From: Porphyrobacter sp. UBA7686
Lineage (GTDB): Bacteria; Pseudomonadota; Alphaproteobacteria; Sphingomonadales; Sphingomonadaceae
NCBI GenBank assembly: GCA_002482865.1
Contig: DLGU01000078.1
Location: 6,611-21,972, forward strand
DNA length: 15,362 nt
Direction of reading: 5' to 3'
The notes under the pieces were generated by a model. It made no database searches. It was not told the DNA's origin and saw nothing but the letters and a program-made list of their open reading frames with translations. Within the stretch, counting starts at the first letter, position 1; each line of letters begins with the position of its first letter. Shown here piece by piece: positions 10,855 to 12,005 of the stretch. A program made the translations under genes and the position numbers.

Positions 10855-11744
10855 GCCAACCGCCCCGCAAGCGCGGCCCGCGCAAGATTCCGGGCGCGCG
10901 GTTTTTCCCGGCACGGCTCGGCCCGAAGGCCGCTGAGGATGAGGACGAAGGTGTGCGCAGTCCGGGTGCAGGCGGGCTGACCTTGCGGGCCATGCTGCCC
11001 AACGCGATCACGGCGGCGGCGCTGTGTTCGGGGCTGACCGGCATCCGTTTCGCCATTGATGCGCAGTGGACTTACGCGATCGGCCTCGTGGTATTGGCCG
11101 GTGTGCTCGACGGGATCGACGGGCGCATCGCGCGGCTGCTCAACGCCCAGTCGCGCTTCGGTGCGGAGCTCGACAGCTTGGCGGATTCGATTTCCTTCGG
11201 CGTCGCGCCAGCGCTGATCCTGTTTCTGTGGTCCTTGCAGGACTGGCCGCGCTTTGGCTGGTTTGCCGCGCTCGCCTTTGCGATCTGCTGCGCGCTGAGA
11301 CTTGCGCGCTTCAACGCCCGGATTGATCTGGACGATCAGCCGCACAAATCTGCCGGGTTCCTGACCGGCGTGCCTGCTCCGGTCGGGGCTGGTCTGGCCT
11401 TCACACCGTTCTACCTGTGGCACGAGACGGGCATCGCCCTGTTTCGCGATCCCGTGCTGATGACGCTTTGGCTGGCGGTGATCGCGATCCTGATGATCTC
11501 AAACATGGCGACCTTGAGCTGGGCCTCAATCCGGCCGCGCCGTTCGATCCGTCTGCCGCTTATCGCCTTTACGGGGTTGGCTTTTGCCGCACTGCTGCTG
11601 GAGCCGTGGTGGACACTAGCGGCGATCTGCATCGCCTACCTGGCGCTCATGCCTTACGGCCTTGTGAAGTACGGGCGGATCAAGCAGCGGCGCAAATTTG
11701 ATGCGGCAGCCTCCGCAGCGGAGCCGAGCGCCGACGCGGCGTGA
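10851..11744 (+). CDS. pssA: CDP-diacylglycerol--serine O-phosphatidyltransferase
   Basis: PssA makes phosphatidylserine from CDP-diacylglycerol and serine, supplying the substrate of Psd encoded just upstream. The 297-residue protein is a polytopic membrane enzyme. The CDP-alcohol phosphotransferase signature D-G-x2-A-R-x8-G-x3-D-x3-D is perfect: D90, G91, A94, R95, G104, D108 and D112 in DGIDGRIARLLNAQSRFGAE and onward. The N-terminal 40 residues are charged and cytoplasmic, and about six to eight hydrophobic segments follow. The start is GTG at 10851, overlapping the psd stop. The C-terminal tail is Lys/Arg then Ala/Glu-rich and probably disordered. Its last 65 bases overlap the convergent small membrane protein gene on the other strand. 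Confidence 0.95.
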   Translation: MSQPPRKRGPRKIPGARFFPARLGPKAAEDEDEGVRSPGAGGLTLRAMLPNAITAAALCSGLTGIRFAIDAQWTYAIGLVVLAGVLDGIDGRIARLLNAQSRFGAELDSLADSISFGVAPALILFLWSLQDWPRFGWFAALAFAICCALRLARFNARIDLDDQPHKSAGFLTGVPAPVGAGLAFTPFYLWHETGIALFRDPVLMTLWLAVIAILMISNMATLSWASIRPRRSIRLPLIAFTGLAFAALLLEPWWTLAAICIAYLALMPYGLVKYGRIKQRRKFDAAASAAEPSADAA

Positions 11745-11937
11745 CGTCCTGACGACGGACGGTGCGCAGTTGCATGTCAACTGCGGCAGCCTGAAGCGCA
11801 AACCCCGCCCGCATCACTTCACCGTCTCGCATAAGCTGCGCATAGGCAGCGCGCGCGCCCATCAGGCTGTGTGCGATGGTGGCCACAGCAACGATACCGG
11901 TCAGCGTGAACAGGGCGGAAATGGCAAGAGCAAGCAT
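11680..11937 (-). CDS. Small single-pass membrane protein, predicted SOS-regulated
   Basis: The family is not recognised. The 85-residue product (from ATG 11937) begins directly with one strongly hydrophobic helix (LALAISALFTLTGIVAVATI). A short amphipathic region (ARAAYAQLMRDGEVMRAGFA) and a basic tail (VRRQDVTPRRRSAPLRRL) follow. It should sit in the inner membrane with a small soluble part. Two starts are possible: ATG 11961 (AGGA upstream) and ATG 11937 (AGGGGA 7 nt upstream). The second is preferred because the promoter candidate would begin transcription close to 11970, leaving almost no leader for the first. Two tandem GTTC-N7-GTTC sites cover the promoter and leader, which predicts LexA repression. 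The 3' end overlaps pssA by 65 bp in the opposite direction, so the tail may not be conserved. By analogy with small SOS membrane proteins such as Caulobacter SidA it could act in cell-division arrest; that is speculation. Confidence 0.68.
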   Translation of the reverse strand: MLALAISALFTLTGIVAVATIAHSLMGARAAYAQLMRDGEVMRAGFALQAAAVDMQLRTVRRQDVTPRRRSAPLRRLPHQICAAA

Positions 11938-11955
11938 GGCGGGTTCCCCTGAATT

Positions 11956-11970
11956 GTTCATTCTTTGTTC
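11956..11970. promoter_or_regulatory. SOS box 1 (LexA site, alphaproteobacterial type)
   Basis: GTTC (11956-11959), seven bases, GTTC (11967-11970) matches the LexA consensus of Alphaproteobacteria, GTTC-N7-GTTC, equivalent to GAAC-N7-GAAC on the other strand. It lies at about the predicted transcription start of the small minus-strand gene. Confidence 0.65.
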
Positions 11971-11976
11971 CTACGT

Positions 11977-12005
11977 CTTGTTCCCTACCTGTTCCAACCT
12001 GTCAA
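11977..12005 (-). promoter_or_regulatory. Candidate LexA-controlled promoter of the small membrane protein gene
   Basis: On the minus strand a perfect -35 TTGACA (complement of 12000-12005) is followed after 17 nt by AACAAG (complement of 11977-11982), a weak -10. SOS box 2 (11980-11994) lies across the spacer and the -10, the usual place for LexA repression. The implied leader to ATG 11937 is about 30 nt. Confidence 0.5.
11980..11994. promoter_or_regulatory. SOS box 2 (LexA site, alphaproteobacterial type)
   Basis: GTTC (11980-11983), CCTACCT, GTTC (11991-11994) is a second exact GTTC-N7-GTTC match, 9 nt beyond box 1. It sits inside the promoter candidate of the minus-strand gene. The two boxes also lie about 230-270 nt upstream of rpsB, so an effect there cannot be excluded. 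Confidence 0.7.

What the first reader, a model, noticed from the sequence alone, without database searches (positions are those of the whole stretch)
11680..12005. Small membrane protein gene under two tandem SOS boxes
Two exact GTTC-N7-GTTC sites (11956-11970 and 11980-11994) lie 9 nt apart. One covers the spacer and -10 of a minus-strand promoter candidate with a perfect TTGACA -35. The only gene served encodes an 85-residue single-helix protein with a basic tail that I cannot assign. GTTC-N7-GTTC is the established LexA target in Alphaproteobacteria. One such site is expected by chance about 0.5 times in 15 kb on both strands, but two in tandem at a promoter is far less likely. Small SOS membrane proteins in this class (Caulobacter SidA, DidA) block division. 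A division inhibitor or other damage-response peptide is the inference.
Basis: partly seen in the sequence, partly recalled or inferred. Interest (0 to 1): 0.75.

Follow-up and report, generated by a model that had tools for sequence, protein, structure and literature searches.

The report
SOS-controlled small membrane protein of sphingomonads
Next to a ribosomal protein gene, sphingomonad bacteria keep a small, unnamed membrane protein gene behind the switch that turns on DNA-damage genes; it probably pauses cell division while DNA is repaired, which has not been tested.

Summary
In detail: two exact GTTC-N7-GTTC boxes, 9 nt apart, at the promoter of an 85-aa single-helix protein gene divergent from rpsB. 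They look like true LexA boxes: the motif precedes lexA in 20 of 20 genus lexA loci read, and recA, uvrA, radA and pdeM in this genome. The tandem pair occurs in 82 of 114 genus genomes, the reversed control in 0; all 30 of 83 sites read lie between rpsB and this gene. The gene is family-wide although its sequence drifts fast: 31 of 40 genera without a sequence hit still have a box divergent from rpsB (shuffles 0.37), against 0 of 40 genomes outside the family. Constant traits are an N-terminal helix, a basic tail and a C-terminal Ala-Ala like that of the tmRNA tag. The 3' end overlaps pssA in one phase in 78 of 80 loci, with pssA codon choice fitting the small gene's stop and Ala-Ala. No searched family library names it. 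LexA control is very likely; transient inhibition of division, as by SidA or YneA, is the best guess and untested.

The parts
12000..12005 (-). TTGACA, -35 element
   Evidence: read; CTTGAC before box 1 in 30 of 30 tandem loci read
11980..11994 (-). LexA-type box 1, GAACAGGTAGGGAAC, over the promoter spacer and into the likely -10
11977..11982 (-). possible -10 (AACAAG) at 17 nt from the -35; weak
   Evidence: counted; inference
11956..11970 (-). LexA-type box 2, GAACAAAGAATGAAC, 18 nt before the ATG
11945..11950 (-). Shine-Dalgarno-like AGGGGA
   Evidence: read; inference
11680..11937 (-). small membrane protein gene, 85 aa plus stop; N-terminal helix, basic tail, C-terminal CAAA
11680..11744 (.). 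65-nt convergent overlap of the small gene's 3' end with the 3' end of pssA
   Evidence: ORF; the name was not tested here; related frame next to the small gene in 80 of 85 loci
   Evidence: ORF; N-terminal 125 aa used as anchor

Best explanation
A LexA-repressed SOS gene encoding a small bitopic inner-membrane protein (N terminus out, basic tail in the cytoplasm) of an unnamed family found here only in Sphingomonadaceae in the wide sense. LexA cleavage after DNA damage frees box 1 (over the promoter) and box 2 (just downstream), so the gene goes from tightly off to on. The protein most likely sits beside the septal machinery (FtsW/FtsI/FtsN) and delays division, and is then removed through its C-terminal Ala-Ala, an ssrA-like signal for ClpXP-type proteases, so that division resumes. 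Sub-steps: LexA control about 0.93; single-pass membrane protein about 0.9; selected C-terminal Ala-Ala about 0.85, as a degradation signal about 0.5; division as the target about 0.5. Control, topology and C-terminus rest on sequence; target and turnover are inferred.
For: Boxes identical in kind to those of lexA (20 of 20 loci read) and recA. Tandem in 82 of 114 genus genomes, control 0, beside this gene in 30 of 30 sites read. 23 of 23 loci in other genera have a box and TTGAC before it. 31 of 40 no-hit genera have a box, shuffles 0.37, against 0 of 40 outside the family. One helix, pLDDT above 90 over about 40 residues; 10-11 K/R against 3-4 D/E after residue 25. C-terminal AA in 25 of 30, 23 of 23 and 29 of 32; tmRNA tags end VAA, LAA or IAA in six genus genomes; codon choice in the overlap. 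SOS-induced small membrane proteins that block a late division step are described for Caulobacter, Bacillus, Staphylococcus and Mycobacterium (PMC13396833 passages; PMC4211646 passages).
Against: No expression, binding or phenotype data. The window's own assembly (71% complete) lacks lexA. Four of 43 gene-bearing genus genomes lack the exact tandem; 9 of 40 and 13 of 80 family loci lack an exact box. Single GTTC-N7-GTTC sites are not enriched genome-wide (55 against 57 reversed). The C-terminal AA lies in DNA shared with pssA, and a DNA-level element there is not excluded. 8 of 85 proteins do not end in AA.
Confidence: 0.45

Rival explanations
1. An SOS-induced membrane toxin or depolarising peptide that works like TisB or DinQ: it lowers membrane potential and causes dormancy rather than a specific division block.
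For: LexA control and a single hydrophobic helix; in many genera a leader of about 100 nt between box and start. DinQ is described as a toxic single-transmembrane SOS peptide (PMC3567139, abstract in search listing).
Against: 70-111 aa with a long basic tail and a conserved C-terminus, unlike the very short peptides (sizes recalled); in the window's genus box 2 ends 9-26 nt before the start in the 30 loci, leaving little leader. Antisense RNA was not looked for beyond Rfam (one tRNA only).
Confidence: 0.2
2. An SOS-induced membrane anchor with another target (protease adaptor, transporter or envelope-stress regulator, repair factor tether), the basic tail being the working part.
For: The tail is the longer part of the protein and carries clade-specific basic motifs, for example around AERRIAVRRW in several Sphingomonas loci.
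Against: Tail sequence varies strongly between genera, which fits a helix-borne function at least as well.
Confidence: 0.22
3. A regulator of its neighbour pssA: damage-induced transcription runs antisense into the 3' end of pssA and the protein or transcript tunes phospholipid synthesis.
For: Convergent overlap of 17-92 nt in the same phase in 78 of 80 loci where the pssA-like frame was found.
Against: No pssA-like frame was found next to the gene in 5 of 85 loci, four of them with box and an AA end; the overlap concerns only the last codons of pssA.
Confidence: 0.07
4. A chance reading frame with chance boxes.
For: Single GTTC-N7-GTTC sites are no commoner in this genome than the reversed pattern (55 against 57).
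Confidence: 0.02

Closest known systems
SidA of Caulobacter crescentus (SOS-induced division inhibitor; FtsW, also FtsN; PMC4211646 passages)
   Same: Alphaproteobacterium, LexA control by the same kind of box (GTTCttgttatGTTC quoted for Caulobacter genes in PMC12700426 passages), small single-helix membrane protein
   Different: SidA is about 29 aa (recalled); this family is 70-111 aa with a basic tail and an AA end. No SidA sequence was at hand, so homology is untested
DidA of Caulobacter (71 aa, one predicted helix, binds FtsN; PMC4211646 passages)
   Same: Similar size, one helix, damage-related if LexA control holds
   Different: DidA is induced by DriD independently of SOS and has short cytoplasmic and periplasmic parts; this gene has LexA-type boxes and a long basic tail
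YneA of Bacillus, ChiZ of Mycobacterium, SosA of Staphylococcus (PMC13396833 passages)
   Same: SOS or damage-induced bitopic membrane proteins; YneA is removed by proteases after repair
   Different: YneA has an extracellular LysM domain; here no domain is found and the tail is predicted cytoplasmic, with an ssrA-like end instead
TisB and DinQ of E. coli (small SOS membrane peptides)
   Same: LexA control, single membrane helix (DinQ: abstract in listing)
   Different: Much longer, with a basic tail; no antisense RNA partner seen or properly sought

Membership tests
LexA (SOS) regulon, alphaproteobacterial type | GTTC-N7-GTTC operator at the promoter | tested here: met
LexA (SOS) regulon, alphaproteobacterial type | same operator at lexA and recA in the same group | tested here: met
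   lexA 20 of 20 loci read; recA of this genome
LexA (SOS) regulon, alphaproteobacterial type | a LexA repressor in the organism | tested here: inconclusive
   0 in the 71%-complete own assembly; 55 of 61 genus genomes, 50 of 51 of high quality
LexA (SOS) regulon, alphaproteobacterial type | RecA-dependent induction by damage, LexA binding | not testable with these tools
   no expression or binding data
SidA | SOS-type promoter | tested here: met
   as above
SidA | about 29-aa single-helix peptide (size recalled) | tested here: not met
   70-111 aa in 85 proteins
SidA | binds FtsW/FtsN and blocks division | not testable with these tools
   no complex modelling or assay offered
DidA | SOS-independent induction through DriD | tested here: inconclusive
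   LexA-type boxes argue against SOS independence; DriD sites were not sought
YneA/ChiZ type | N-terminal helix plus LysM domain | tested here: not met
   no Pfam match in any of the 22 members scanned
TisB-type type I toxins | very short hydrophobic peptide (recalled) | tested here: not met
   70-111 aa with a basic tail
TisB-type type I toxins | antisense RNA antitoxin | not tested
   only Rfam was scanned

The most novel reading that the evidence does not exclude
A checkpoint protein of a new architecture, fixed in the Sphingomonadaceae between rpsB and pssA: LexA-gated, self-limiting through an ssrA-like Ala-Ala end written into DNA shared with pssA, and in some genera also reading replication status through a strand-specific DnaA-box-like site (TTATCCACA) between LexA box and start codon. 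In the Erythrobacter lineage the long leader with that site is absent and a second full LexA box stands there instead.
Probability: 0.2. Interest if true: 0.8.

Novelty: new member of a known kind. Interest (0 to 1): 0.6.

Why it matters
Nine searches of this library listed no paper whose title or abstract start concerns a DNA-damage division checkpoint in sphingomonads. This gives one conserved, LexA-boxed, unnamed candidate that can be tested in culturable Sphingomonas, Novosphingobium or Erythrobacter. It also shows that a fast-drifting small protein can be followed over dozens of genera by its promoter, its neighbour and an overlapping stop codon where sequence search fails.

Tried and rejected
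Chance: rejected by the cross-genus surveys. LexA acting on rpsB: not favoured, because -35, box and small ORF go together on the divergent strand. SidA as positional orthologue: I recalled that sidA might lie near rpsB; within 900 nt upstream of rpsB no box was found in 20 same-order and 20 same-class genomes (three hydrophobic ORFs there, one with a TTG start, none with a box). C-terminal AA as a by-product of pssA: suspected, then tested by codon choice and rejected as the sole cause. Leader as RNA hairpin: mean z -1.8 over 37 leaders against mononucleotide shuffles, 22 of 37 below -1, but with an invariant left arm and variable right arm; a DNA site is at least as likely; unresolved. DnaA-like site: 34 of 51 leaders in one set but 13 of 80 named loci and none in the window, so it belongs to some clades only. 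PDB fold search: no match. Family libraries: none in Pfam, NCBIfam, PHROGs; PDB sequences gave one E=0.78 P450. PADLOC was not searched.

Rows left out and choices: one search read loci in the wrong orientation and is replaced. Searches read 30 and 29 loci out of 43 and 47 matches. Alignment A1 uses 22 of the 30 loci. Of 55 single sites in this genome I chose 20 stretches by eye and named 8 neighbouring genes, so that list is selected, not a regulon survey. In one search, set B is the 23 other-genus loci; set C is 32 ORFs picked by hand from the 40 loci (8 left out: 7 without a fitting ORF, 1 with a 140-aa ORF of another build), two starts in set C being moved to a later ATG. One search read 20 of 61 LexA matches; four further lexA stretches were fetched and not analysed. 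One search read 30 of 83 tandem sites. One search's codon counts use 78 of 80 loci (two in another phase left out). In one search ORFs were picked by a script, so single picks may be wrong.

Full report
WHAT IS THERE. On the minus strand the order is TTGACA (12005-12000), 5 nt, GAACAGGTAGGGAAC (11994-11980), 9 nt, GAACAAAGAATGAAC (11970-11956), a Shine-Dalgarno-like AGGGGA, then ATG at 11937 and an 85-codon frame whose stop ends at 11680 (read). The window lies in an unnamed 2.6-Mb assembly that is 71% complete. Named homologues are mostly from Porphyrobacter and Erythrobacter (188 proteins, 120 listed, none of those with a Pfam domain; given names are mostly 'hypothetical protein', with one 'Histidine kinase' and one 'YoaH' label that nothing else supports).

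ARE THESE LEXA BOXES? In the same genome the motif, in either orientation, precedes recA (GAACAAGTAGGGAAC, almost box 1), uvrA, radA, pdeM, nrdA and gyrA (positions; names, where recA, radA and pdeM pass the curated cut-off and uvrA, nrdA and gyrA are N-terminal pieces below it). These were picked from 20 stretches that I chose by eye out of 55 sites. The assembly has no LexA, but LexA is found in 55 of 61 genus genomes and 50 of 51 of the high-quality ones, and all 20 lexA loci read have GTTC-N7-GTTC upstream. Single sites are not enriched genome-wide (55 against 57 for the reversed pattern), so position and conservation carry the argument. The same motif is given for Caulobacter SOS genes (PMC12700426, passages).

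WITHIN THE GENUS. A single-sequence query finds the protein in 43 of 61 genus genomes (own included) and in 0 of 39 genomes of other families of the order. All 30 loci read have at least two boxes with a gap of 9-10 nt between the two next to the gene; five have a third. The tandem pattern occurs in 82 of 114 genus genomes, once each except G136 with two, and the reversed control in none. Thirty of the 83 sites were read: all 30 lie between rpsB and a small membrane ORF, with CTTGAC before box 1. Of 43 gene-bearing genomes 39 have the exact tandem, in the same orientation and 13-60 nt before the match; G006, G020, G045 and G051 do not. Selection is purifying: dN/dS 0.07-0.25 for the window gene against nine relatives. 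Against the nearest relative, 14 of the 17 changes outside the overlap are at third positions.

BEYOND THE GENUS. A profile finds the gene in 47 of 298 family genomes, 18 of 96 genera. All 23 other-genus loci read have at least one box, with TTGAC just before it, 77-116 nt before the start. For 40 genera without any sequence hit I fetched the stretch upstream of rpsB: 31 have a box on the divergent strand, against a shuffle mean of 0.37 (maximum 2) and 1 in the other orientation; 24 have TTGAC within 14 nt of it. In 30 of those 31 a hydrophobic-headed ORF of the same build was picked (not in L162). In 20 genomes of other families of the order and 20 of other orders of the class there is no box in either orientation. 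So this reads as one positional family with fast sequence drift.

THE PROTEIN. AlphaFold gives one helix over residues 2-64, pLDDT above 90 for 40 residues, and a disordered tail. Foldseek finds nothing in the PDB, expected for one helix. Pfam, NCBIfam and PHROGs give nothing. Hardly any K/R lies in the first six residues (0-0.03 on average) and 10-11 K/R against 3-4 D/E follow residue 25; by the positive-inside rule (general knowledge) that means N-out, C-in. The last two residues are AA in 25 of 30, 23 of 23 and 29 of 32 proteins of three sets, where tail composition predicts 0.97, 0.57 and 0.76. The tmRNA tag of six genus genomes is ANDNEALA followed by V, L or I and AA.

THE OVERLAP WITH PSSA. 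Because the C-terminus lies in pssA, AA could be a by-product of pssA coding. A pssA-like frame was found in 80 of 85 loci, and in 78 of 80 the genes overlap in the same phase by 17-92 nt. At the pssA codon crossed by the small gene's stop, arginine is AGG in 30 of 31 cases although AGG is 39 of 1086 Arg codons elsewhere in these pssA pieces; lysine is AAG in 44 of 44 (62% elsewhere); the next codon is CGG in 63 of 66 CGN cases (34% elsewhere). Outside the genus the figures are AGG 25 of 25 and CGG 41 of 43. These are the choices that TGA and Ala-Ala on the other strand need. The loci are related, so p-values mean little, and a DNA-level element here is not excluded.

HOW IT MOST LIKELY WORKS. 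Supported by sequence: a LexA-type operator pair on a fixed promoter, a conserved small membrane protein, a selected C-terminus. Inferred: LexA holds both boxes and shuts the promoter; damage frees it; the protein delays division at the FtsW/FtsI/FtsN step, as reported for SidA and DidA (PMC4211646, passages) and for YneA, with ChiZ and SosA also acting late (PMC13396833, passages); the Ala-Ala end makes it short-lived. SulA and YneA are removed by proteases after repair (PMC13396833), so a built-in removal signal fits a checkpoint protein. Whether division is the target is untested; I put it at about even odds.

NOVELTY. SOS-induced small membrane proteins are a known kind. By the features tested this family is not SidA-sized and not YneA-like, and no searched family library names it. 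The literature searches showed no paper on a sphingomonad SOS small protein among the titles and abstract starts listed (for only 15 of 194 papers were listed; PMC8116508 and PMC9437464, which mention LexA beside sphingomonads, were not opened).

LIMITS. No expression data; lexA of the source organism not seen; Caulobacter sidA not compared; 13 of 80 named loci and 9 of 40 surveyed genera lack an exact box; some ORFs (for example L142, L154, L238, L296) stand without one.

Noticed in passing
L094-L117 and L145-L179, between LexA box and ATG: A strand-specific DnaA-box-like TTATCCACA (at most one mismatch) in 34 of 51 leaders, shuffled mean 0.385, 2 on the reverse strand, often with a partly complementary right arm. 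Only 13 of 80 named loci have it and the window has none.
   Followed up: partly
window 11680-11744 and the same place in 78 of 80 loci: Convergent same-phase overlap of the small gene with pssA; pssA uses the rare AGG codon exactly where the small gene's stop lies.
   Followed up: yes
L033, L035, L036, L037, L038 upstream of the gene: A third GAACN7GAAC box 18-20 nt upstream of the tandem pair.
   Followed up: no
L043:1001-1743 (G000:C60): A box precedes a gene whose C-terminal part weakly resembles UmuD-like S24 autoproteases, with an HTH-like N-terminus by eye; possibly another SOS or phage-type regulator.
   Followed up: no
L049 and L056 (G000:C150, G000:C171): Boxes upstream of nrdA (ribonucleotide reductase) and gyrA.
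   Followed up: no
L039:1001-1015 (G000:C1:4923): A box identical to the window's GTTCCCTACCTGTTC elsewhere in the genome; the neighbouring gene was not identified.
   Followed up: no
L234: A record titled Actinobacteria bacterium 21-64-8 carries a sphingomonad-type rpsB (90% identical) with boxes and small gene; probably a mislabelled genome.
   Followed up: no
window 3881-7853 minus strand, 7984-8898 plus strand: By eye, ORFs resembling a DabA/DabB inorganic-carbon uptake pair beside a divergent LysR-type regulator; not checked with any tool.
   Followed up: no
Sphingomonas loci such as L263, L266, L268, L286, L294, L304: The tails share a motif around AERRIAVRRW, a possible partner-binding site.
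   Followed up: no
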